Part shown: in pieces, positions 7,008-55,139 of the stretch | Numbering within the stretch: position 1 is the stretch's first letter | How the letters are laid out: the number at the start of each line of letters is the position of its first letter | NCBI GenBank assembly: GCA_023375675.1 | Contig: JALQBC010000005.1 | Span: forward strand, 868,001-932,000 | DNA: 64,000 nt | From: Cytospora piceicola | Lineage: Eukaryota > Ascomycota > Sordariomycetes > Diaporthales > Cytosporaceae | Reading direction: 5' to 3' | Program-made: the position numbers and the translations under genes | Notes under the pieces: generated by a model | What the model was told of the DNA's origin: nothing | The model's database searches: none | What the model saw: only the letters and a program-made list of their open reading frames with translations

Positions 7008-9694
7008 ATGGCCTTTCAACATGCTTTGCTGCCCGTAAGTTGCGCCACTGCACCTGGAACGCTCGGTGACTGGTACCCGCTTGGGAAGTATTGAGAACGA
7101 TTGTAGACTAATATATACTGCGACTTACCAGGAACTCGCGGCGGTGACAGCTGAGACTTGGCCTTCGGTCGCGAACAGGTTGCCAACTTCTTGGAGAGCC
7201 TCAACAACACTAACCCGCCCAGCCTCATCTCTGTATCCCACGCCGCACTCTGACCGGGCCTCAAACCTCCCATACTTCCTTCGCAACGAGCTGCCTAGCC
7301 GGGACACCTGTCTCCCGAGCCACCAGCCGACGTACGACATCCGATCAACCATTGCCACAATGCCATCGTTCGCGCTGGCTGCGGCAGCTAACCCGCTTGT
7401 TCAACAATCCACCTTCCGTCTCGCGACACAGCAAACCTCAAGCGCCATGCCTCGATTGTTCTCGACAATAGCCACAGGTGGATTACAACGCGGAGCGGCG
7501 AGATTCTACACCACGTCTGGTTTCCACGCCTCCGCCATTTCTCGGCCTGTCTCCTCTGCCCAACCGTCATTCTCTCTTGGTCGCGCTATTGGTCTTCTGC
7601 AATACCGATTCTTCAGCAATGGGGGGATCTCTCGCAACATGCTGGCCAATCTCGAGGCTGCCGCCAACCGGAACCCGACTAGTCCCACGGCACAGAACGC
7701 TTTTTACCAGGTGTTACTTAAAGCGAACATGCCGGCTATCATTGTCGAGCGTTACCAGTCCGGGAGATACGCCAGGAACCAGGCTGTCGAGGAGGCCTAT
7801 GCCAAGGCTTTGTCTCTGCTTACCGCTAATAAGACTGTCGATATGGGGACACACGGTGGCCATTCCAGTGGGCTGAGCCAAGGCCAGCTCCAGGCCATCA
7901 GCCAGGCCGTAGCTGCCAACGCCCAAGGAGGAAACATCGCCATCTCTTCCAAGGGCTCTGGCGCCAAGGACGGTCCTATTCATGTCGTCGTCGATGAGTC
8001 TATTGGTACCTCTGTCTTCAAATGGATCCGCTTCTTCATGGTGTTTGGCTTCGTCTGCTACCTCAGCTTGATAGTTGTCAGCATGGTGGTCGAGTCTTTC
8101 AACACTCTCAAGCGAACTGGTACTGCTAGGGCTGATGCGGAGGTCAAGGCCGAAGCGCAGAAGGCTCGTTTCAACGACGTTCATGGATGTGATGAAGCCA
8201 AAGAGGAGCTTCAGGAAATCGTTGAGTTCCTGAAGAACCCTGACAAGTTCTCCACTTTGGGTGGCAAGCTGCCAAAGGGTGTTCTCCTTGTTGGTCCTCC
8301 TGGTACTGGTAAAACCCTGCTCGCACGCGCAGTCGCTGGTGAAGCCGGAGTTCCTTTCTTCTATATGTCCGGAAGTGAGTTCGACGAAATATACGTTGGT
8401 GTCGGTGCCAAGCGGGTCCGGGATCTCTTCGCTGCCGCAAGAGGCAAATCCCCGGCAATCATCTTCATTGATGAACTGGATGCCATAGGCGGAAAGCGTA
8501 ACACCAGGGATGCCACTTATGTGAAGCAGACACTGAATCAGCTCTTGACCGAGCTGGATGGATTCGACCAGAGCAGCCAAGTCATCATCCTCGCCGCGAC
8601 CAACTTCCCGAAGCTCCTTGACAAAGCTCTGACTCGTCCTGGTCGATTCGATCGTCACGTTTCGGTGGACCTGCCTGATGTCCGCGGACGGTTGGCTATT
8701 CTCAAGCATCATGCCCTGAAGGTCAAGATGTCCGAGGGCATCAACCTGCAAGAGCTAGCCCAGGGAACATCTGGATTGTCCGGTGCCGAGCTCGAAAACA
8801 TTGTCAACTCCGCCGCGATCAATGCCAGCAAGAACAAGTCTTTGTTCGTTACAATGAGGGACCTGATCTGGGCCAAGGATAAGGTTATCATGGGAGCTGA
8901 GAAGAGGACCATGGTCATCAGCGAGAAGGAGAAGCTTATGACGGCCTATCACGAAGCTGGCCATGCTCTGGCAGCCCTGTATACCACAGCCCAGCCCATG
9001 CCTCTGTACAAAGTCACGATCCTTCCCCGGGGAATGTCTCTTGGTCACACCGCCTTCCTTCCGGAGATGGACAAGTACTCTTGGAGTTCGTCGGATTATG
9101 CCGCCAGAATTGACTGCTCCATGGGCGGCAAGGTGGCTGAGGAGATCGTCTACGGCAACGACATGGTTACCTCAGGTGTCAGCGCAGTAAGTTGCCGGCC
9201 TATCAAACCCAGCCTTGTCTCAGGTTTACTAATCCCCATTCTAGGACCTCAACAACGCCACGGACCTAGCCTTCCAGATGGTCGCATCCTTTGGCATGGG
9301 TGGTCGGGACTTGGCTCCCATGGACTTCGGCTCCAGATACAGCCAACTCAGCTCGGCCACCAAGGAACTGGTCGAGAAGGAAGTACAAAAAATGCTGACC
9401 GTGTCCTATGATCGTACAAGGGAGCTCCTCAGACTGAAACGCAAGGAGCTTGATCTCCTGGCACAAGCGCTCGTCGACTACGAGACCCTGGACAAGGAGG
9501 AGGTACTGAAGGTCATCAAGGGCGAGAGACTCACCGATCGCATAAAAATGCCCAGGAGCGGCCAGATGACCATTCCAAGGCCTCCAAATCCGCTCGAGAG
9601 CCTCCCGCCGATCGCCGGCGGACAGCAGGGTGAGGATGCGGGCGGCTCCGATGGACCCCCGCCTCCACCACCTGCCCCTCCCGCCTCAGTTTAG
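7008..9694 (+). CDS. YME1: Mitochondrial i-AAA protease, YME1/IAP-1 homologue
   Basis: ATP-dependent zinc metalloprotease of the mitochondrial inner membrane, active on the intermembrane-space side and degrading unassembled or damaged inner-membrane proteins. Preferred exons are 7008-7034, 7132-9186 and 9245-9694 (843 aa). Intron 1 has GTAAGT, a CTAAT branch site and CAG; the last intron is 58 nt. An alternative start at 7360 gives 758 aa and begins with a plausible presequence. Visible features are a membrane segment (about residues 307-329), Walker A GPPGTGKT (about 397), Walker B FIDELDA, the arginine-finger region TRPGRFDRH, and the M41 zinc site HEAGH (about 616-620). The C-terminus ends in a proline run. 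All catalytic elements are present. Residues encoded near 7179-7250 may be locally out of frame; see findings. Confidence 0.95.
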
Positions 9695-21497: not shown

Positions 21498-24400
21498 CTA
21501 TGTTTGGCAACGTACCGTGACTTTCCTCCGTTCCTCGTGACGATGTGTTGACAAAAGCATGTTAACCAGCTCCTGCTTCCGCCCTTGGACTTGTCGGACA
21601 TACTTGGAGGCCAAATATTAGAGCGTGCGATTAATCAGTAGCAGGCACGCGAAGAACAACGAACCTCCTCGATCGATTCCTTGATGAAGAACCGGACGGT
21701 CACCACAGGCTGTGTCTGTCCAAGCCGGTACACTCTAGCCAGGGCTTGTTCCTCAATCGCTGGATTCCATTGCGGCTCCATCAAATACGCACGGCTTGCC
21801 GCAGTAAGAGTGAGTCTGACGTGAATACATATAAGTTCCTGTAATCATGGTATGGATCATGGAATCTTGTACGTACCCGACAGCACCGCAAGAAAGTGAC
21901 ATGAGTAATATTGCCTCGGTTTCCAATTCTGAGAAGCGCTGCAAGATCTCACCCCTTTGCTTGGCTTGCACATTTCCATCAACTTGCAGACACGTGATTC
22001 CTGCTTGTGTGAGTGCTGATGAAGCGAGATCTAGAGTTGACTTCCAGAACGAGAACACGATGCTAGGCACAGATTAGCAAGTTTTAACCAAGTCGACGTG
22101 CATGTATATACGGACCTTTTCGTTGCATGTCTCTGGGATTTCAAGTCGTTGACAAGGGCTTTGATTTTGGTTGGAAATACCCTACTAGAACTCCGGTCTC
22201 CCTGAAACGTGACATTGTTCGAGAATTGAGAATCCAGCTGAGACATTGGAACACCGTCTTGGGAGCTTTCAATTGTTCCGATGGCGTCTGAACAGCAGGA
22301 CAGACATTGACTTGAGCTCTTGCCGCTGATCAATATCCCACAAATCGTGCAAGTCGATGGTAACCCAGTCAAATCGTCATCATCCAAAGGCTTATCCACA
22401 ACACCAAATGCGCCATTGAGATTTCCTGTACCGGTTCCTGTTGAAGTGGCATCTGATGGAGTGGCATCCCTGAGATTCATAGAACTTCCGAGGTTGCAGA
22501 CCATCCTCAGGGCGTTGATTTTTGATATGGCGTTCATATATCCGTTCCCGCCAGTCTCTGAGCTTATTATGTCGTCCAGATACTGAATTGTGGCCCGTTT
22601 AGCTAAATTGTATGTAGTCTTGTCTTGGCCATCCAATTCCAATGGAATCATTATGTCCGTCCGTCTGGGAAGATTAAGTATATCTTTGTTACGGCGGAGC
22701 ATTGTGTATCCAAGCAACTGCTTGAGCCTCTCAATAGCCACTTTCGGGTTTTCTGACTCCCATGTGAGGCTTTTGTGTTCATTGTATGGATAGAGTCGAA
22801 GAAATCGGAATAAGCTGAACAGTTCGGATAGGTGATTCTGGATTGGTGTTGCAGTAACCACCCACCTACGATCGGCGACCAAGGCACAAGTGGCCTGGGC
22901 AGTCGCTGCAGTGCTGTTCTTGATAAGTTGTGCTGCAGAAAAGTCAGTTTTGCGTATACATCTAGGAGTCTTGATCTCGGATTACAACCTTCGTCCAGAA
23001 TTACTCGGTGCCAATAGTGCGTGAAGATGCTTGTTTTTCCACCCTTGACAGTCCATTCGCGGGCTAACGTAGTGTACGTCGTGAAGACAATATCAAATTC
23101 CGAGAAGCTACTAGATCCCTTAGCTCGGTCAGGCCCATGATACAGAAACCATGATAGATGGCCAGGTGAAGTGTGTCTAGTCTTGGGTCAGCGATTCCTA
23201 AGGTTCTCAGACTGACACATTGAAAACCCACTGTCGAATCTCTGTTTCCCAATTCAATAGGACTGTTTCATTAGCAGTAGCCAACAGGAGCAAGACGAGT
23301 TACTCACGGGAAGGTGGCACCACGATCAAAGTTTCCCTTCGTAGCTGTCTCGATTCTATGTGTACAGATTTGTCGTGGGCAATTAGTGCGATCATGCTTA
23401 GGGTCTTTCCCAGACCCATGTCATCGGCAATAATGCCCCCGTAGAACGGGACTGGGCGTTCATAATGTTGGGTGTCGTCAATGTTGTTCAGGTATCTGTA
23501 TATGGATCAGTCAAGGCAGCTAAAACCAAGGAGAGATGTTTAGGGATTGGTAAACAATCCACCAAACTCACACTGTGTTTCCGGCTTCGTCAGCAGTCAC
23601 GGACCACACGTCGTCTTTCATCCTATTGAGCTGCCAACCCTGCTCTCGGCGGACCATGAACGTAAGACATCTCTTCTGATGACTGCGCAACGTAAAAGTT
23701 AGGGTTGTCCAACAGCGTCGTTTCGTTGAGTATATATTTGAAAATAGTACCTTTTGAGCTGGGTAAGAAGTAATGTAGACCCTTCGGTCTCTCGCATATT
23801 ATCTTCAGAGGTGAAGTCTTTGAGGACGTCTACCGCTTTGACCTGACCCACCTCGGAACAAGACACATCCATGTCGTACCTGAAGCTGATGGTGCGTAGA
23901 CCCTCAGTATTCTGGAATCTTTGGGGGTTCCAGTAGATGGTATTCCTCTCTGCATGAATCGGGTCTTGAAGATAGACGTCAATTTCCTGAAGAGTATCTC
24001 CCAGGTCTCTGGCAAGCGCCTTTTCCCCATAGATCGTCAGCCATAGAGTACCTCTGGACCGGTCTGTGGCAGCTTTGGGAGCTGGGATCCAGAGGAGGTC
24101 AAACTCAACTCCTTCTTTTCTGAAAAGTTCCAGTAACTTGACATCACGCTGTGTAAGCCTGCCGCAGGTGGTATGGTCTGGTTGGCGTAGTTGTCCCGTA
24201 TCATCTGTTTGCAGTATCATCTGATGTGATATTGGGTCCACCTTTGTAACTACGAAACTTGTTATCTTGACAATAAATTAGTTCGGCTCGATATCAGCAT
24301 CTCAGAAGCAGTATGAAATATACCTACTGCTCCAAAGCACACCAGCTCGACGGGCTTTATACTGTCGTTCGATTCCTGAACACATGGAGTATTCGAGAAT

Positions 24401-25496: not shown

Positions 25497-28400
25497 ATGG
25501 CGCAAAGACAACTGGAGCTATCCTGTGAAAGGTTCCGGAACGAGCTCGATGCTGGGGACGACAAATTGATCAGAGCGACTTCTTTGAATGACGTCCGTGC
25601 TACCATTGCTCAAACTGAGAGGGAGCTGGCATCCCGGCAAGGCCTTCGAAACTTTGACAGACTGTCTCCCTATATCAATGCCGTCGAGCGCTATGGTACA
25701 GTAATCGAGGTGTTCTGTAACTCATCACCTATAGTGCCTTACATATGGGTAAGTCGTCTGCCACTTTATTCTAGCGGGCGTAGCTCACTCTGACTCCACG
25801 ATTACTAGGGTCCTGTGAAGTTGATCATATTGGTATGCCATACCATCTTGTGCGGATATTCCTGAAAGGCTGAGCATAACTTATACTGGTACAGGCCATC
25901 AAGGAACAGACTCGAGCATTAGAGCAAATACTTGGTGCATATGCTCAAATTGGCAATGCCTTGCCAAGGCTATCTGCCCTCCAAGAGTCGCTAAAAGACG
26001 ATTACGACTTCCAGGTGCTCTTTGCCTTCTTACACGAAGACATCACCGAATTCCACCTCAGGGTTTACCGACTTATACGCAGACCAGGTAAGCTTCCACT
26101 TACGTCCAATGCTGTGTCTGATTAGGGTGCTAAAAGCCGACATAATAGCCTGGACAATATTCTTTTCCTCGGCTTGGAGTCGCTTCGAACGCCATTTCAG
26201 CGCTCTAATTGCCAATATAGCGAAGACAAGTGATCTGATTGATAAGCAAGCGGCGACATACCACATCTTGGAGGTGAAGGAATGGAGACAAAGGTCACTG
26301 GATGACTCTATCACCCGCGAAAAACGTTGGGACACGGAACAGATCCTGGCAGTAAATAACTGGCTTGGGAACGAAGTCCAACTTCAGAAGCTGAAGTTGG
26401 ACAGGCTGGGTGCTCGAAGCCATGCGGGCACCTCATCTTGGATCACGAAACACATCAAGTTCAGATCTTGGCTACAGAGGGGCCGCGGAAATCCTATTCT
26501 ATGGATCTACGGGAAACCTGGGTCTGGTCAGTTCTCCATTTTTGTCTCACGACGCCAAGCCAACATTGAATGCTGACGTATACTGCAAGGCAAATCTGTT
26601 CTGATATCACAGGTTGTATCATTCGTCTCTGCCGACCCAAATAAAAGAATCCTGTTCTTCTTTTGCGACTACCAAATACCAGCCTATGAAGTCACGACCC
26701 AGATCCTCAAGGCTTACCTAGCCCAATACATCTCCCAAGATCCTGGGATTGTGCCGTTTCTTTACGACGAGTACCTTGCCAAGGCACTCTCACCAGGAGC
26801 CAAGGAGCTGAAACGGGCGCTCATCGATGTTTTTAAGTCCACAAATTTCGTCAGATTAATCGTGGATGGGCTTGATGAGGTTCAAGTGTCCGAACATAAG
26901 CTCATTCTTCGAGAGCTCATACAAATCACAAAGCTCTGTGGCGAGACCTGCAAGCTTCTTGTAGCCAGTCAAGATCTTCCAAGCATTCGCCCTATGCTTG
27001 GTCACATGCCCCATATATTTCTTGGAGATGAGCGCGAGGCGATCAGAACGGATATGGGCATGGTAGTCGATGCGGCGTTGACGGATCTTAACGAAAGTTT
27101 GAATGGTGCACTTCAAGTGCAGAAGGCGTCACTTCAAGAGTCAATTCTTAACAAGGCCCAAGGTTAGGATTGTTTACTGTACCATCCGGGTGAAGAAGGA
27201 CAGTACTAATTCAGAGTATAGGCATGTTTCTCTGGATCCAACTCATTCTACCGCTACTGGAAACCTCTTGCAGCTTATCTGAGTTGAGGTCTAACATCGA
27301 AGCGCTACCCAAGGACCTGGAAGACATGTTAGTCACATTTGAGGATTCTACCCAGGTGTGTCACTAGGTCTTGTTGCTAATGGTAATGTCTTAAAAAGGT
27401 ATGAAAAGCTCCTCAATAATATCCGCAATCGCTGTACCCCTCGAGATCTATCGAGAGTCTCAAGGATATTCGAATGGCTTCTCTTTGCAAAGAGGAGAGA
27501 CCATATCCAGAAATATGATGTTCTCCTTGGATCGAGCATCCATGAAGACTGCATGACTCTGGATAGAGATACCAGACCTTTCCCTAACGCTTTAGATATT
27601 TGCAAACCGTTGATAGAAGACGGGCCAGACCGTACCGTCAGTTTGATACATTCGACATTGCCCTCGTATGTCTATATTGATCTACCTTTCCACAAATAAG
27701 CCGAATATCTCTAATATATATAGCTTTCTCCTTGGTTCACGAAGTGGGCCTTCTATCTCTGCACATATCGCTCACGAGCATATCGCTTTCGCCTGTGTAT
27801 CCCAACTAATCCAGATCCTAGAGTTCGCTCAATCGGAATCTCGAGAAGATGAAATCATGGAAGCCGTCGGGCTTGGGTGCTTAGGTCTTCAACGATATGC
27901 CAGTGAGAATTGGACCTTCCACATTCAGAAATACACCGAACTTTCTCACACAGAGCTGAATCCCGAAGTTCCTCTGATGAGACAACTCTTACGACTCGCA
28001 ACCAGGCATAACGAACTATCGGGAATACTGAAGCCACATGTCACTGAGAACGCTCAAGATTTGGCTTCGACTCTAGTCACGGATACCTGGCTTCAAGGAC
28101 TAGGGGCATTTCCTGGAGTTTGTGACTTGTTCGGTCGTATTCACTGCTTCCAGGATTTGTTCTCTGCTCAACAACGTCTCACAGGACCCGGTATGCGAGT
28201 TTATCCCTTCTATTAGTCACATGTGTGTGTTAATATCTCATTATCTTAGACGTTCTGGCGGTTGACTCGGACACAACTCTTTTCTCGCTTGCGGACTCCA
28301 AATATCAGGCTGTTGTACAGCGCCTACTTGAAGCAACCAGTTGCACTCGCCTGTCATCGGCTGAGCTACTCGCTTTCAAAACCGAGTTTGGAGATACTGC

Positions 28401-29871
28401 CTTCGTCTGTCCCGTCAAAGGGTGTCTCTCAAGTTTAGGGTACCCATCTGCAGCTGAGCTTAATGACCACAAGACTCGACAACATAGCCAGCGTCTGAGG
28501 TGCTATCAAGGAAAATGTGTTCACAACGACGTCGGCTTCGCGAATGAGGGTAGTCTTCGCCAGCATGTGCAAAAGACGCACAAAAAAATGCTACCGCAAA
28601 TTCCGACGGCAATTAAAAGGGAGAGGAAGATCGAAGATTATAAACCGCCCGTATCACCCGGCCAGCCGCCACACACTCGCTCCCGTGATTACGTCGGTCT
28701 TGATCTTGAGCGGTCCCCTGATCAGCACGAGCAAGCTCGAGATGACTGGTTCGTGTTCTTCAATTCATCTGTCCGTCGCCTGTTGGATGTGGATCTTATC
28801 CACACTCTGCCCCACGAGAGTGTTGTCCACTGCGTCAACATCAGCATCGATGGGCAGTTTGTAGCTGCAGGGTGCAACAAGACTGCTCAGATCTACGATC
28901 TTATCAGTGGAAAGAGAATCTGCGTTCTACAAGATGACAGCGCCAGCGCCAGCGCCCGATCTTTTGACGCTTGGTACATCAATATCGTTTGCTTCAGCCC
29001 CGATGGCAAGTATCTTGCTACTGCAGGTCGAAATTTGATCCAAGTAAGTGATTAAGCTGTCGCTCCCTCCGCGGGGTTTTCGCTAAATTTGTCAGGTCTG
29101 GGATATCGCTTCTCGCTCGATCAGTTACACCTGTTCTAGCCACATGCATACTGTCTATAGCTTAGGCTTCTCTAGTGATGGCAGGGCTATTGCCTCTGGC
29201 GATGCTGAAGGCAATGTCAGGCTTTGGGATCTTGACAATCAATCTAATCAATCTAGCGTGCTAATACTTACTATTGGTAACGGAGGAGTTACTGATATTG
29301 CTATCTCTCCCGACTGCTCGCTAGTTGCAGCTGGATCTACAGATATGACCATCCACGTCTGGGATATCCATACCCGAACTCAGATCGAGCACCTTAAGAG
29401 CCCCGACGGGCATATGGAATATATACATAGTATTACCTTCTCCTCTGATAACAAGAAACTTATCAGCAGAAGTCTCGATGGGATTACCAAGATATGGGAG
29501 CTCAGCTTATGTCGACAGGGCGAAATCGAAAAAGTTCGGTGCTCTCAAACATTCGAGGGTTTTGGGGTAAGCCATTATCTTCTTAAAGTGTATAACGATA
29601 GCCAACTTTATTAATTTATATTCAGGATCCCGGTGCTAGCGTCGCTCTGACACCCGATAGTCACTGGATGCTAACCGCTTGTTATGATGGTACCCTGGAT
29701 TTTTGGGACTCGAGAACCAGTGACAGGCAACTTATGGTCCGGGGTCACACGGAAAGCATTCACTCAGTGGCAGCGAGTCCGACAGGCAGGTACTTCGTTA
29801 CCGGCTCTGCAGACAATCGAGTCCGCATTTGGGCGTACGACCTATCAGGTATTAACACGAGCTGGATCTGA
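25497..29871 (+). CDS. NLR-like DUF7708-NACHT-C2H2-Tup1 WD40 fusion
   Basis: Eleven exons: 25497-25748, 25809-25832, 25895-26087, 26149-26526, 26590-27162, 27222-27327, 27399-27665, 27724-28190, 28250-29043, 29096-29566 and 29626-29871. Every intron is GT-AG, phases close, and no stop interrupts the 1256 aa. Residues 1-160 resemble the DUF7708 N-terminal module of fungal STAND proteins (WGPVKLIIL, partly from a 24-nt exon). The NACHT ATPase has Walker A GKPGSGKS (278-285) and Walker B LIVDGLDE (372-379). Two C2H2 fingers follow (C807, C812, H827, H832; C838, C843, H859, H864). From about 918 the chain reads like the Tup1/RCO-1 corepressor: DWFVFFN and LLDVDLIHTLPHESVV before blade 1, then seven WD40 blades. 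It may act as a cytosolic or nuclear sensor in incompatibility or immunity; the ligand is unknown. The Tup1 assignment rests on recognition, not a search. Confidence 0.85.
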
Positions 29872-48791: not shown

Positions 48792-51700
48792 TCACGTCCT
48801 CCTGCCTCGAGGACGGCCTCTGCCCCGGCCACGGCCCCCTCCTCTCCCCTTTCCCCTGATAGCCATCCGTCCTCTTGGGGCTGTCCGGCCCCTGGTGCTC
48901 GGTACTGCAGGAATATCGTCATCTTCATCTCCGTCATCGTCAGCAGACCCAGTGCGGGAGCTGAAGCCGGACCCAGAGGCCGAATTATGATCACTGCCGC
49001 CGTCTACACGGGAGCCAGAAGCAGACGCCGAATCACGATCGCTGCCACCGTCACTACCGCTGTAATAGCTGTAGCCGTCTTCGTCAAAATCGCCAAGCCT
49101 GACAACGGTTGGGCCTCCCACATGCTCATCCTCCTCGTCCGAGTCACCAAGTCTCACGACCGTCGGACCCGCTGGTTTGGGCGGCGGGGACGGCTCCATG
49201 CTGTCGTATGTAGGCTCGACGGGAGCACGACTGGGCTCCTTTGAAAAGGTGGGTGCACTTGAGACCCTCGACCTCGGTGCCACGCTGGAGGCCTTGGACT
49301 CGGGAGCGACGCTTGCCGGCCCCGATGAAACGTGCTCCTCATCGGCATCGTCAAAATACTCATGAGCATCATACATCGGCACGTCGCCATCTTCCTGTGT
49401 GTCCGATGCTTGATCTTCCGGTGCTTGATATTCCGGTGCTTGATTTTCCGGTGCTTGATCGTCCACTAGGACAATGGAGTCCTCTGCAGGGGCTGCATCA
49501 ATGGCATCGTCGTCATCGCCATCCTTGCTTCGACTTGTCTCCGCACCGTCGCGGCTGCTCTTCCTCTTTCCGATCTTGACTTTCTTGCCCCTGAGCGCCA
49601 TACGCTCAGCCATGGACATGAACTTCTCGCTGGACGGCCCGGGAGCAGCGGCGTTAGATGTTCCACGAGAGCGAGTTGCTCTCCTCGAGCTTGGCTCTTC
49701 TGCTGCCATCGCCGGAGCCGCGTTCTTGCGCGGGCGGCCCCTTGATCGTCTCTGGACCGAGACCGACCGAGACGCTGGCTCGCGGGATGCCTCGTCCTCT
49801 TCCAGCTCCCTGGCAAGCTGCTGTTCCAATTCCTCGATAGTTGAGTCCTTAGGAGATTCTGGCTCGTTGTCAACAACCACTGAACTGACGGCTAAAGACG
49901 ATCGTGGTGGGCGGCCACGCCGCTTGGGTGCGCCGGATTGTGGAGTGGGAGGTTTTGGAGTAGCCTTTGGCACAGAGTGAGGAGGGCCTGAATCAGACTT
50001 GCGAGGTCTACCTGGTCTCTTCTTGCGGACAGGTGCTGATACTGTATCCTGGGCCTCTAAGCCGCCGGTGATGGCGCGCATGGCTTCCGCAGCGAGGTCA
50101 ATGGGGTCTCTGCTCCGCTCCTGATGCTCCTGAGCGGGCTGCGGCGTAGGTGTGACTGTCTTGGGTTTGATCGGCAACACGTCATTGAATTCCTCAATGT
50201 CATCCATGTCTGCGTAGGAAACCTTGGGCCTCGACTGCCGCAACGTCGGAACGTTGGGATCGAACGGGCGGCCTTTGTCGACGGGGCCCTCATCCTGACC
50301 ATCCTGACCGTCCTGCTCATGTTGGTTCTCTTCTTCAGCAGAGGCCTCCTGCTGTCCAGTCTCCCGAGGCGGTGCAGGCGGTGCATCAACCATGGTTATG
50401 TCCTCACCAAGCAGTGCTGGGTCGACATTCTGTAGACCGTCGGCCTGGGGTGTTTTCTCAGTCCTGGTTTTTCTCCTATGCGACCTACCCACAACAAAGT
50501 CGGGATCTTCGTCCTGACGAGCACGCCGCTTTGCTGCACGCAGCGACTTTTTGACCCACTCTGACTCTTCGAACTCCTCGTCGAAGACATCCCTCTCTGT
50601 GGGCTCCTCGTAGGGATTGAACAGAATCTTGTCAGGGTCATCTTTTTGTTCGTAGTATAGCCGTCCCAGCCTCCGCTCTGCACCAAGCAAGGAAGGATCA
50701 GGATAGGCTTCAGGCTCTGGTAAGAGCGACCCATTAAGATCAGGAAGCATGGGGAGACCTTCAGCTTCGACGTCATTGGCCGCCTGTGGCTGAGGGCCAG
50801 CTTGGTCGTTGTTGTAGTCAGCAGCGCCATTGGCAAGTCCACCAACCGGTTCTTGACCTCCGAAACCATTGGTTTCAGGAGGTGGCGCCGCCATGTCCTG
50901 GTCGGGGCCCGGGCCGCCACCTGCGAGCTCACCTACGGCATCCGCATTGTCTTTAGCCTTGTCGGCCTCGGCTTCCTGCCGCAACCGCTGAATTCGTTTG
51001 CTGTTGTGATTGCGGCTTCCATCACCAGCTGCATGAAGCCAGTTCAGATTGTGCACGCGGAAGTCTACCAAAGTCTCCTGACTGCGATCATCTGCGATAG
51101 CACGCGTATCGTGTCCAATGTAGGTGTTTTTGGGCTCATACGGGTTTGTATTGCCCGTCCTTCGACATCCGCCGCAGTTGCAGATTCCTTGGCATTTAGG
51201 ACATTGCCATCGTTCCTCTTGCAACACCTCCTGCGGCATCATATCAAAAGCTCGGTAGAGAACACCAAAGCAATACGCCTGGTTGCACCCTGGATTGGTA
51301 CAGAAGGCCAGACGATAGGTGTAGTCTTTATGGCAGCAAGTGTGGCATTTGTATGTGTCACCCTTCTTCTTCTTCCTCCTTGGCTTCTTGGTGCGTCCCT
51401 GATTGTCAACCTCTGGCTCTGACGGCTCCGGATCAGGCTCTTTGTCAGGTTTCGAGATGTCATTGAAAGGTCGTCTCCTGAGCTGTTCCTGGCAGATCTG
51501 AGCCAATGACTTCCTGCCAATCTTCATTCTGGCAATCTCGAGTGGCGGGGGTGACAGGTTCATGTCGACGTAACCATCGTTGGTAATGACCATGTCTCGC
51601 CATAACTCATAATGGCCCACCAACTCGGACCAGTCCCACTGCTCACACCAGGAAAGCCCTGAAACGCAAAGGCAGGATCGGCCCATGGCGTAGCATTCCA

Positions 51701-53127
51701 TGCAGACGTCATATGTGTCCTGGTCGCCACCGACAAGGTCCCGAACACAATGTTTGCAAGTGAGGAACTTGTTGAAGATGTTAGAGCGGCAATAAGAGCA
51801 GATGACGCATGAATCGTAGGGGACCAGTTCCACGTTCTTTTCCTTAGATCCAAACATTTCGTCCACCAGTATTTCCGTGAAAAGCTGTAGAAGCTTCTTG
51901 AAATCTTTCTTCAGTTGTGTCAGTCTTACGGAATCTCTACCAACCTCTTCTCCGAGGAGCAGCGACATCTGGGATTCTGCCGCGTCTCGGAGTTGCTGGT
52001 AGTATTTCTGCAAAGTGTAATAGATGATGGCCTTGTTCTTGTATTGCTCATCGCGACAGACGAGCCTTTGTCGAGGGAGTGCTTCATGCAGAGCATAGTC
52101 AAGAGTATCGATAGTCGTACGATTCCAAGCGACTTTCATCGTTCTCGTGCCACGGTTCCAAACCTGATGAGGTGCCAAGGGTGGGATGAGGATGAAGTCG
52201 CCAGGTTTCTGCTCAACGACGTAGACCGGAAATGTCGCCTTCTTCCAAGCGTTTACTTGGGCGAAATGCTTCTCAATCTCGACATCATGACCCAGCATAG
52301 ACAGGAAGTATTCCCGGACGACTTGTCGGTCTTTGGTCTCAGTCATGAACCAGACCGAGCTGCCCTCCTTCTCCCCATTCTCATTGCTCGAGGCTTCGAC
52401 CATGATATTCTGACCAAGAGAGCCGCACATCTCTCGATGTGCTGGGGTGTATGTTCCTTCGTGTCCAATGTAACACATCAAATTTTGAGCCCGCATCTCT
52501 GCGGGAAGACTGCTCATAAGATCACCTGCCGGGGCTGCTGTGTGCTCTTCCATGAATATGTCGTCGTCTTTTGAGCCAGCGTCCTCCACATTTTCATTCC
52601 AGTAGAAGAGTCCGGGCGGCATAACCTTGCGAAGATGGTCATGCCATTCCGGCGGGCAATCGATGTCTTTCATATACAGTCTTTGCCTCCGCTCGTCTCG
52701 GAAATTGTTCGGGGTCCATTGGTCGGTAAGCTGTCGCATCGATCGCAGGTAGTGACCCATGGTCATGGGAATATTAGAGTGTGCATTGATGTCGCGAACC
52801 TCTTCCTCTGTGTGGTTATTAGCATCGAGACGATCATGTGAATGGCACCGCGGTAAACATACGCTTCTTGTTGTATGTGTCCTCGAGGTACTGGGCACTG
52901 AAAAGCGATTTGGGAAGCTTGCTGTTCCAGCCCTCGATGACAAGAGGTTTCCCCTGCTTGACGACCTGATACCACACGAGCTTCTCAAATTCGAGCTTCC
53001 TGATCTTGTTGGCTGGAATGCGCTGGACCCATTCAAAGTTGGGCGTCCGATCGACCAGTCCCTCCAGGTGCAAGTCCGGTGGAACTGGGTCGAATTTGGC
53101 CTGGGGGTGTGTTGCTATGCTAGGCAT
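48792..53127 (-). CDS. JmjC protein with zf-4CXXC_R1 and AT-hooks
   Basis: Exon 1 53127-52863 and exon 2 52807-48792, with a 55-nt intron (GTATGT, GCTAATAAC branch, ACAG), give 1426 aa. The N-terminal half is a JmjC oxygenase domain with candidate iron ligands H212, E214 (TPAHREM) and H302 (APHQVW), so it may be an active Fe(II)/2-oxoglutarate demethylase. A Cys cluster (CSYCRSN, CKHC, CMEC) follows, then a zf-4CXXC_R1 (CDCA7-type) finger with CHTCCH, CTNPGCNQAYC and CPKCQGICNCGGCR. The C-terminal third is disordered, with three AT-hook cores (PGRPRK, RRGRPPR, RGRPRK), acidic stretches, repeats and an RG-rich end. It is a nuclear chromatin regulator; similarity in plan to Neurospora DMM-1 is possible but unverified. 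The annotated long frame extending upstream of the intron is not used. Confidence 0.9.
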
Positions 53128-53915
53128 TCTGACAGTTGATGATCACAAGCTTGGGCGAATGCTTGGATGTGACGGAAGCTGATGACCGTCACTGTCAAAG
53201 TTGGCGGATCGCATGCGACCAAACGACACGACGGCGGAGGATGAACCGCTCAGTGCATATTCGACGGGCTTATCCCCCACAAGAAGAGGTGAAATATACC
53301 GAGATATGAGGCGGGAATTAGCAAGAGATACTCTTCTGAAAGGGGAGAGTCACAAGTGGTTGTATTCGTATGTGAGAGGTGACGACGCCTTGTCAATAGC
53401 ACGGTTGTATGGCAGTGTCCAGGCGCGGTAGGTGCGATTATGAACCTGGGAAGCACGCTTAGTTGCCTACGCGCCGCCCAATCAGCGTTTTCAGCCGCGC
53501 GTTTGGCCCACTGTAATTTTCAATTGGCAAGGCTGCATGAGTTGCATTTAGGTACTTGTTTGTAGCACGGCATATATCATTAAGAACGTTAAAGAAATTA
53601 TAGTCTTGTTACCTGCAGGAGTTTCATCTGTGGTCAAGTAGAGGTAAGGAACATTCCCCCATCGCCGTCGACGAAACTCTTGTTGGTGTGGAGTTGTTTA
53701 CCCTTTCAAATGTGACGTTCGAACGACAAGCTCTGGAGATACTGCAAGCGCAGATCAATGGGATCTAAGCCGGGTTTGAATTTGTACTTCTTTTTGGCAG
53801 CTGGATGTTCAGTAATTGCAGGTGGGAACATCTCTTGCCATCAAATCCGCGGCTGTTGGTTCCCGTTGACAAAGCTGATACTTCATGCAGGTGGAAACAA
53901 AGGGTTTGAGCTACC
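53128..53915. promoter_or_regulatory. Divergent promoter, JmjC / COQ2
   Basis: Region between divergently transcribed JmjC and COQ2 genes. It carries a 76-aa plus-strand frame (53201-53431) with no recognised homology, which I do not call as a gene. AT-rich near 53560-53610. Confidence 0.5.
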
Positions 53916-55139
53916 ATGAACGCCGTCCGGGCTGGCAGAACAGGAGCAGGCTCATCTGGCTTATTCACTTCATGTCTTTATCCCCAAGGCTCGTTGCGCC
54001 ATAGCCAGATATGGGCGACTTTCCATAGGTCTCAGTCCCGCCATGGACAGACGGCCCGGTTGATCGCACCTCCTGCAACAAGAGCATTCGTCCACAACGG
54101 AGCAGCCAAACCAGCAGCTGCAGCTCAAGCAGTCGCCATACCTCCTGAGCAGCCGCTACCGCCGGCATACGCGCCGCCCAAGACCGGCATCCTCTCTGTA
54201 CTGCCCTCATCATGGGTCCCCTATGCTGAGCTGATAAGGCTCGACAAGCCCACCGGCACCTACTACCTCTTCTTCCCATGCCTCTTCTCAACACTCATGG
54301 CAGCACCGATGGCAGCACCGATGGCGACGCCAGGAGCCGCCATCGGGACCTCGGCACTCTTCTTCGCCGGCGCTCTGATCATGCGCGGTGCCGGCTGTAC
54401 CATCAATGACCTCTGGGACCGTAACCTTGACCCCCAAGTGCGGCGGACGAGACTGCGGCCCATCGCAAGAGGTGCCATCACGCCGTTCCAGGGACTGGTA
54501 TTCACAGGAGCCCAGTTATTTGCAGGACTGGCGATCCTGCTCCAGTTCCCGCTCGAGTGCTTCTTCTACGCTACGCCCAGCCTGTTATTTGTGGCTTCAT
54601 ACCCTCTCATGAAGAGGGTGACGTACTATCCGCAGTTCGTCCTGGGGATGACCTTCTCATGGGGCGCCATAGTCGGCTTCCCAGCCATGGGAGTTGACCT
54701 GCTATCAAACACGCCGGCTCTTACAGCCGCCGCCTTGCTGTATTCATCCAACGTCGCCTGGACGGTTCTATATGACTGCATTTACGCGCATATGGACATC
54801 AAGGATGACGTCAAGGCTGGCATCAAGAGCGTCGCTCTGGCACATGATCAATCTAAGAGATTTCTGGTGGGACTCGGCGCCGTACAAGTCGGGCTCCTTA
54901 CTGCTGCGGGTGTGGCCGCAGGCGCGGGACCGGCATTCTTCGTCGGAAGCTGCGGAGGGGCCATCGTCACTCTGGGCATCATGATCAAGAGGGTCAAGCT
55001 CCAGGATGTGAAGGACTGCTGGTGGTGGTTTGTGAACGGAGCCTGGTTGACTGGTGGGGTCATTAGTGCTGGATTGGCTGTGGACTATGCTCTCAGATAC
55101 ACGGCTAAGGAACAGGCCGAGGAGGCTCAGCAGCAATAG
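53916..55139 (+). CDS. COQ2: 4-hydroxybenzoate polyprenyltransferase (COQ2)
   Basis: Single-exon gene of 407 aa. COQ2 is a mitochondrial inner-membrane enzyme that attaches the polyprenyl tail to 4-hydroxybenzoate in ubiquinone synthesis. The N-terminus is basic and Ser/Ala-rich with no acidic residues, as expected for a presequence. The UbiA-family first Asp-rich motif is NDLWDRNLDPQVRRT (about residue 163) and the second is YDCIYAHMDIKDD (about residue 286). About eight hydrophobic helices are visible. A short direct repeat (MAAPMAAPMATP) lies in the loop before the first motif and looks like a local tandem expansion. It is convergent with RPS23. Confidence 0.95.
   Translation: MNAVRAGRTGAGSSGLFTSCLYPQGSLRHSQIWATFHRSQSRHGQTARLIAPPATRAFVHNGAAKPAAAAQAVAIPPEQPLPPAYAPPKTGILSVLPSSWVPYAELIRLDKPTGTYYLFFPCLFSTLMAAPMAAPMATPGAAIGTSALFFAGALIMRGAGCTINDLWDRNLDPQVRRTRLRPIARGAITPFQGLVFTGAQLFAGLAILLQFPLECFFYATPSLLFVASYPLMKRVTYYPQFVLGMTFSWGAIVGFPAMGVDLLSNTPALTAAALLYSSNVAWTVLYDCIYAHMDIKDDVKAGIKSVALAHDQSKRFLVGLGAVQVGLLTAAGVAAGAGPAFFVGSCGGAIVTLGIMIKRVKLQDVKDCWWWFVNGAWLTGGVISAGLAVDYALRYTAKEQAEEAQQQ

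What the first reader, a model, noticed from the sequence alone, without database searches (positions are those of the whole stretch)
25497..29871. NLR-like NACHT protein fused to a Tup1/RCO-1-type WD40 propeller
The C-terminal 340 residues do not look like the highly repeated WD40 arrays of known fungal NACHT-WD40 proteins. They follow the Tup1 corepressor blade by blade. The linker before blade 1 (DWFVFFN, LLDVDLIHTLPHESVV), blade 1 (GCNKTAQIYD), blade 2 (CFSPDGKYLATAG, VWDIASRSI) and the last blades (SVALTPD, ASPTGRYFVTGSADNR) match what I recall of Tup1. The frame is uninterrupted across eleven exons, so this is one gene under coding constraint. A corepressor domain built into an immune-type receptor would be an integrated-decoy or guard arrangement, or a receptor that can act on chromatin through Ssn6-like partners. 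I know of no description of it.
Basis: partly seen in the sequence, partly recalled or inferred. Interest (0 to 1): 0.92.

Follow-up and report, generated by a model that had tools for sequence, protein, structure and literature searches.

The report
Fungal immune-type receptor carrying Tup1 propeller
A fungal gene joins an immune-receptor-like ATPase to a copy of the fungus's own Tup1 gene-repressor propeller, whose binding face has since been rebuilt; this suggests that housekeeping proteins can be recycled as sensors in fungal immunity.

Summary
The fusion is real. An 11-exon gene (25497-29871, +) encodes 1256 residues: helical DUF7708 domain, NACHT-type STAND ATPase, two C2H2 motifs, then a seven-bladed propeller. 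Receptor homology ends near residue 877-887 and Tup1 homology starts at 891, inside one uninterrupted exon. In trees the propeller falls with Tup1 (100/100 against eight NLR-type WD40 propellers) and, without that outgroup, with the genome's own and Diaporthe Tup1 (100/99). It keeps Tup1's last intron position but lacks the Ssn6-binding N-terminus. Residues conserved in true Tup1s changed at 37 of 70 top-face loop positions but only 3 of 22 bottom-loop and 13 of 68 core positions; two fast-evolving true Tup1s show the reverse. The repressor-docking face was released and rebuilt on a kept scaffold. Best reading: a Tup1 propeller recruited into the receptor's C-terminal sensor slot. Action on chromatin through Ssn6 is not supported; a decoy mimicking Tup1's top face is disfavoured. 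Tup1-propeller capture recurs: a metagenomic NLR-ankyrin-Tup1 protein (separate origin), Xylariales proteins, a Marasmius kinase. Integrated decoys in fungal NLRs are already published; my searches showed no Tup1 case.

The parts
25497..29871 (+). whole gene, 11 exons, 1256-residue protein
   Evidence: spliced model; backbone homology from residue 1 in P0001
25677..26264 (+). DUF7708 (residues 61-195), helical N-terminal domain, presumed output module
   Evidence: Pfam 1.4e-11; all-helical in the AlphaFold model of relative P0001
26427..26969 (+). NPHP3_N / NACHT-type STAND ATPase (residues 250-409), Walker A GKPGSGKS at 278, acidic DGLDE at 375
   Evidence: Pfam 1.6e-29; motif positions; Foldseek matches of the P0001 model to STAND and other AAA+ ATPases
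28408..28581 (+). two C2H2 zinc-finger-like motifs (residues 807-864)
   Evidence: pattern match in the window and, as a pair, in 10 of the 14 relatives P0001-P0014; no Pfam finger family at E 0.5
28618..28660 (+). junction: receptor homology ends near residue 877-887, Tup1 homology starts at 891
   Evidence: inside exon 9 with no stop
28744..29841 (+). Tup1-derived seven-bladed WD40 propeller (residues 919-1247)
29044..29095 (+). intron in blade 2, absent from the genome's own Tup1 gene
29567..29625 (+). intron at the same place and phase as the last intron of the own Tup1 gene (FEGFG|DPGAS against FEGHR|DFVLS)

Best explanation
A fungus near Diaporthe (judged from its Tup1) copied, as DNA with its intron, the 3' part of its own Tup1 gene (linker plus propeller) onto the C-terminal end of a DUF7708-NACHT-C2H2 receptor gene. 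The propeller now serves as the receptor's ligand-sensing domain. Its scaffold is kept, but the top face that in Tup1 docks repressors has been freed and rebuilt. The inferred working cycle: the receptor rests closed; a ligand (non-self protein, pathogen effector, or a changed host protein) binds the new top face; the NACHT ATPase opens and oligomerises; the helical N-terminal domains are brought together and trigger a defence or cell-death output. Shown here: architecture, Tup1 origin, no Tup1 N-terminus, top-face-biased change, overall coding constraint. Inferred: the ligand, oligomerisation and output.
For: Tup1 side of a 100/100 branch against 8 NLR-type WD40 propellers; with own and Diaporthe Tup1 100/99. 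Conserved top-loop positions changed 37/70, bottom loops 3/22 (p 0.0012), core 13/68 (p 4e-5). Leave-one-out true Tup1s run the other way: Malassezia 3/71 loops against 21/103 rest, Phaffia 6/72 against 22/101. dN 0.32, dS 1.64, ratio 0.20. In 11 relatives measured, the tail after the backbone differs widely in length (20-651 residues), so this end is a variable slot. STAND-type fold of relative P0001. In HET-E the residues under positive selection lie on the propeller's top surface (PMC1805685, passage).
Against: No expression, population or ligand data. Only one sequence of this fusion, so positive selection cannot be separated from release of Tup1 constraint: over all columns, conserved or not, top mismatch is 55/97, bottom 34/75, core 55/153, a weaker contrast. 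In the tree with the outgroup the window's place inside the Tup1 side is unresolved and a long-branch warning names it. No paper in the library names DUF7708. dN/dS is averaged over both genes and dS is near saturation.
Confidence: 0.55

Rival explanations
1. Integrated decoy: the propeller still resembles Tup1 enough to be hit by an antagonist's effector or mycovirus protein aimed at Tup1, and being hit triggers the receptor.
For: Domain derives from the fungus's own Tup1. Integrated decoys are proposed for Sordariales NLRs with a CHK-2-derived kinase (PMC12258605 section 14). The related plant corepressor TOPLESS is bound by a pathogen effector (PMC7446885, abstract and passages). RCO-1, the Neurospora Tup1, is needed for hyphal fusion (PMC3068686, abstract and passages), so it is a plausible thing to guard. 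The independent NLR-ankyrin-Tup1 protein P0165 keeps 7/7 hotspots and 67/70 top-loop positions.
Against: In the window's own protein 37/70 conserved top-loop positions and 5/7 Tup11 hotspot positions are changed. The listings of searches (15 of 104 papers shown; 5 papers) named no effector or viral protein aimed at fungal Tup1; those papers were not opened, except PMC1805685 and PMC7446885 in passages.
Confidence: 0.22
2. Transcriptional switch: the fused propeller competes with Tup1 for DNA-bound repressors when the receptor is activated and so derepresses Tup1 targets.
For: C2H2 motifs lie just before the propeller; the top face of Tup1-type propellers matters for repression and binds the DNA-binding factor Fep1 in Tup11 (PMC2882346, PMC3419727, passages).
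Against: Top face largely rebuilt; no Tup_N found, so no Ssn6 recruitment by the known route; the C2H2 pair is also present in relatives without the propeller.
Confidence: 0.1
3. A decaying or non-functional fusion that drifts.
For: Very long branch: 2.1 against 0.04 for the own Tup1; no relative with the same fusion among the proteins listed.
Against: All 11 exons open, GT..AG introns; differences by codon position 99, 77, 168 over 325 codons and dN/dS 0.20; no CpA excess of C>T; change is face-specific, not uniform.
Confidence: 0.08
4. Two genes read as one: a C2H2 receptor and a separate Tup1-like gene that happen to be adjacent.
For: The gene model rests on sequence alone, without RNA.
Against: The junction lies inside one 794-base exon with no stop, about 40 bases after receptor homology ends; four other captured propellers (P0165, P0174, P0177, P0198) carry a similar piece of Tup1 linker.
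Confidence: 0.05

Closest known systems
Fungal Tup1 / RcoA / RCO-1 corepressor
   Same: Propeller and the linker before it are Tup1-derived; last intron position shared
   Different: No Tup_N domain found; top face rebuilt; fused to a receptor
DUF7708-NACHT-C2H2 receptor family (for example P0001, Fusarium flagelliforme)
   Same: Whole backbone to residue about 877, 47% identity, including both C2H2 motifs
   Different: Relatives scanned with Pfam (P0001, P0002, P0003, P0005) have no propeller at E 1e-5; their tails are short or unrelated
Fungal NACHT-WD40 allorecognition proteins (HET-E/NWD type)
   Same: NACHT ATPase followed by a C-terminal WD40 propeller
   Different: Blades here are diverged (at most 39% identical), not near-identical tandem repeats, and come from Tup1; the near-identity of HET-E repeats is recalled
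Sordariales NLRs with CHK-2-derived kinase (putative integrated decoys, PMC12258605)
   Same: Domain of a single-copy core host gene fused to the receptor's C-terminus
   Different: Different host gene; here the functional face diverged
P0165, metagenomic NLR-type C2H2-ankyrin-Tup1 protein
   Same: NLR-type winged-helix part and C2H2-like motifs, ending in a Tup1 propeller
   Different: Separate origin (AU p 9.5e-4); ankyrin repeats in between; top face kept; N-terminal part with the ATPase not seen (contig of 5138 bases)

Membership tests
NLR-type STAND receptor | NACHT/STAND ATPase with Walker A and acidic Walker B motifs | tested here: met
   NPHP3_N 1.6e-29, GKPGSGKS, DGLDE; the NACHT model itself scores 23.3 bits, under its 26.7 cut-off; P0001 model matches STAND ATPases and resistosomes, with ORC/Cdc6 chains among the same matches
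NLR-type STAND receptor | N-terminal output domain | tested here: inconclusive
   DUF7708 present; function unknown
NLR-type STAND receptor | ligand-triggered oligomerisation and immune output | not testable with these tools
   needs experiment
Tup1/RcoA corepressor | C-terminal Tup1 propeller | tested here: met
Tup1/RcoA corepressor | N-terminal Tup_N domain for tetramerisation and Ssn6 | tested here: not met
   not among families found in residues 1-919 at E 0.5; only genome match is in the true Tup1 gene
Tup1/RcoA corepressor | conserved top face for repressor docking | tested here: not met
   13/21 R1, R1-2, D-1 positions and 37/70 conserved loop positions changed
Integrated decoy NLR | extra domain duplicated from a host protein | tested here: met
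   own and Diaporthe Tup1 clade 100/99
Integrated decoy NLR | domain keeps the surface that the antagonist hits | tested here: inconclusive
   top face not kept; antagonist and its surface unknown
Integrated decoy NLR | host original is a target of antagonists | not testable with these tools
   no report in the listings of searches
HET-E/HNWD allorecognition WD40 | near-identical tandem WD40 repeats (recalled) | tested here: not met

The most novel reading that the evidence does not exclude
Tup1's propeller is repeatedly captured by receptor-like proteins in fungi (the window's NLR, the P0165 NLR-ankyrin protein, the Xylariales proteins and a basidiomycete kinase), because Tup1 is a hub attacked by a still unknown class of fungal antagonists or viruses. 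Some captures stay faithful baits (P0165), others are rebuilt into new sensors (window, Xylaria scruposa P0177).
Probability: 0.2. Interest if true: 0.85.

Novelty: new variant of a known kind. Interest (0 to 1): 0.63.

Why it matters
WD40 counts as a normal C-terminal domain of fungal NLRs, so a domain census does not see that a given propeller came from a core host gene. This gene shows that it can. It also gives a case in which a highly conserved binding face lost its constraint after joining a receptor while the fold was kept, with an independent capture (P0165) that kept the face as a natural contrast. If Tup1 is a common bait, the fungal antagonists that target it become a direct search goal.

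Tried and rejected
Repeat-induced point mutation as cause of the divergence: C>T by next base A 17/71, C 14/61, G 15/57, T 11/70, so no CpA excess; there is a general excess of C>T plus G>A (111) over T>C plus A>G (71) and a lower GC (0.493 against 0.541). One origin for the seven ascomycete fusions: rejected, AU p 6.5e-7. Window with P0165: rejected, p 9.5e-4. Window with the Xylariales group: NOT rejected, p 0.13, although the best tree puts the window with own and Diaporthe Tup1. Position-only tests are weaker: 8 kept and 13 changed of 21 against 142 and 77 of other conserved columns, p 0.019; on the 18 positions conserved in all Tup1 rows (95% or more), 10/18 against a pool rate of 0.33, permutation p 0.033, and neighbouring shifts also change much, such as 11/18 at -1 and 8/13 at +2. 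I therefore rely on loop classes, which I set from Tup1 blade motifs after seeing the residue result. P0220 was labelled a fusion in the trees but carries Tup_N and is a Tup1 with extra sequence. YN00 failed. Foldseek gave no match that I could assign to the DUF7708 part. No neighbouring effector gene was seen among ten ORFs scanned (nine of the 47 listed plus one shorter; four had no Pfam match).

Full report
What is there. The gene runs from 25497 to 29871 on the + strand in a 43.6-Mb assembly of 99 contigs. Eleven exons joined at GT..AG introns give 1256 residues. Pfam places DUF7708 at 61-195 and NPHP3_N, a NACHT-like STAND ATPase, at 250-409. Two C2H2-like motifs lie at 807-832 and 838-864; a pair of such motifs also occurs in 10 of the 14 top relatives P0001-P0014. 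The propeller starts at residue 919.

The junction. Of 16 relatives compared by BLASTP, 11 give alignments that end between window residues 868 and 889 (P0001, P0002, P0003 and P0009 at 877); four end earlier (P0010 804, P0013 835, P0087 627, P0100 517) and P0011 runs a weak 28.5% segment to 905. Tup1 homology starts at residue 891. The switch lies at about 28618-28660, within exon 9, which has no stop in the coding frame and 4 and 18 stops in the other two. The Tup1 piece brings 28 residues of linker, and P0165, P0174, P0177 and P0198 bring a similar linker.

Origin of the propeller. The genome gives one Tup_N match, a partial one just under the family cut-off, in the true Tup1 gene on contig C68; that Tup1 is 95% identical to Diaporthe Tup1 over the propeller (315 of 330). 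The window propeller matches it at 201 of 365, while the best BLASTP hits to the eight NLR-type WD40 propellers are 21-34%. A 49-row tree separates 41 Tup1-type rows, the window among them, from those 8 at 100/100; in that tree the window's place inside the Tup1 side is unresolved, it has no starred set, and a long-branch warning names it. Without the 8, the window groups with own Tup1 and Diaporthe Tup1 at 100/99; its sister within that trio is unresolved (92/2). Rows were a choice: 26 of the 49 proteins (the other 23 were partial, near-duplicates or simply not chosen) and 10 of the 120 listed, three of them split in two. The last intron sits at the same place and phase in both genes, while the window gene has one further intron in blade 2. 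So the copy most likely came from DNA, not from a processed messenger.

What happened after fusion. The window branch is 2.1 changes per column against 0.04 for own Tup1. It is still under constraint: dN 0.32, dS 1.64, and 168 of 344 nucleotide differences fall in third positions. Following the published scheme of R1, R1-2 and D-1 top-face residues (PMC3419727, passages), 13 of 21 such positions changed although 17 of the 21 are invariant in 27 Tup1s; 5 of the 7 residues shown by calorimetry to matter in Tup11-Fep1 binding are changed, mapped by motif, not by structure. Using loop classes, conserved top-loop positions changed 37/70, the rest 16/90 (odds ratio 5.2, p 4e-6); split further, bottom loops 3/22 and core 13/68. 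Leave-one-out controls with fast true Tup1s give 3/71 against 21/103 (Malassezia), 6/72 against 22/101 (Phaffia) and 2/72 against 10/99 (Mycena). Among other captured or tandem propellers the pattern varies: P0177 30/70 against 11/90 (p 2e-5), P0198 20/70 against 11/89 (p 0.015), P0174 19/70 against 13/89 (p 0.07), P0114 first copy 26/67 against 21/89 (p 0.05) and second copy 7/70 against 18/90, P0159 13/70 against 9/90, P0173 13/70 against 13/90, P0111 second copy 7/70 against 7/90, P0113 second copy 3/62 against 13/78, and P0165 3/70 against 10/90 (which printed only the 14 rows with 12 or more changes). None of these p values is corrected for many tests. Over all columns, conserved or not, the contrast is smaller (top 55/97, bottom 34/75, core 55/153), so loss of Tup1's binding constraint is shown; positive selection is not.

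Recurrence. A search limited to proteins of 0.55-1.75 times the length of the whole protein scored 7998 candidates and gave 2820 hits, 120 listed. Ten of those 120 carry the Tup1 entry motif; one, P0220, has Tup_N and is a Tup1. The others are P0165 (GPIID_WHD winged helix, ankyrin repeats, C2H2-like motifs by eye, Tup1), five Xylariales proteins (P0159, P0173, P0174, P0177, P0198) with a shared N-terminal region, a Marasmius protein kinase with two Tup1 propellers, and two proteins with tandem Tup1 propellers that might be joined gene models. I call the Xylariales group zinc-finger proteins from the source's name for P0198 and by eye; Pfam gave only E 0.27 for P0159's N-terminal part, and the other four were not scanned. 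Lower-ranked hits were not seen, so this is a lower bound. One origin for the seven ascomycete fusions is rejected (p 6.5e-7), and so is joining the window with P0165 (p 9.5e-4); joining the window with the Xylariales group is not rejected (p 0.13).

Receptor side. The backbone is closest to Fusarium and Monosporascus proteins at 46-49%; the own genome has no close paralogue, the best being 32-33% on contig C1. The AlphaFold model of P0001 (14 sequences, mean pLDDT 66) shows an all-helical N-terminal region followed by the ATPase. Foldseek's best PDB match is a chain from the maltose-system entry 8bob (MalT, as I recall); plant NLR chains (G10, NRC2, NRC4, Sr35) follow, mixed with ORC/Cdc6-type ATPases, at whole-length scores of 0.25 or less and 11-13% identity in the top ten. 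This supports a STAND/AAA+ core and no more.

Literature. The census papers PMC9815663, PMC12258605 and PMC4986451 show 0 uses of 'tup1' in the search listing. [quoted passage not shown] Two NLR allorecognition papers mention Tup1, one for its propeller surface and one only in its reference list (passages). The listings of searches (20 of 24 papers; 20 of 111; 10 of 1,551; 15 of 104; 5; 5) showed no Tup1-NLR fusion; most listed papers were not opened, and subscription journals are mostly missing from the library.

Verdict. A real, intact fusion; a new variant of the known integrated-domain NLR kind. The Tup1 origin is well supported, the chromatin reading is not, and a rebuilt sensor is more likely than a faithful decoy.

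Noticed in passing
P0159, P0173, P0174, P0177, P0198: Xylariales proteins with a shared N-terminal region, C2H2-like motifs by eye and a C-terminal Tup1 propeller; Pfam found neither NACHT nor Tup_N in the N-terminal part of P0159, the only one scanned that way. Some have a changed top face.
   Followed up: partly
P0165 (metagenome contig, 5138 bases): NLR-type winged-helix part, C2H2-like motifs, ankyrin repeats and a Tup1 propeller with an intact top face; a separate NLR-Tup1 capture, ATPase part not seen.
   Followed up: partly
P0114: Marasmius tenuissimus protein kinase followed by two Tup1-type propellers, one with a changed and one with a kept top face.
   Followed up: partly
29044-29095: Intron in blade 2 of the fused copy that the own Tup1 gene lacks; could be intron gain after the duplication.
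   Followed up: no
window 48795-53114 (-), 22034-22981 (-), 7039-9408 (+), 53910-55136 (+): Neighbouring ORFs with JmjC plus zf-4CXXC_R1, SNF2, Yme1-type AAA/M41 and UbiA domains; an ordinary chromosomal setting.
   Followed up: no
P0003, P0005, P0007 C-terminal tails: Tails after the backbone share similarity with each other but gave no match to P0001's tail; the C-terminal slot of this receptor family looks variable.
   Followed up: no
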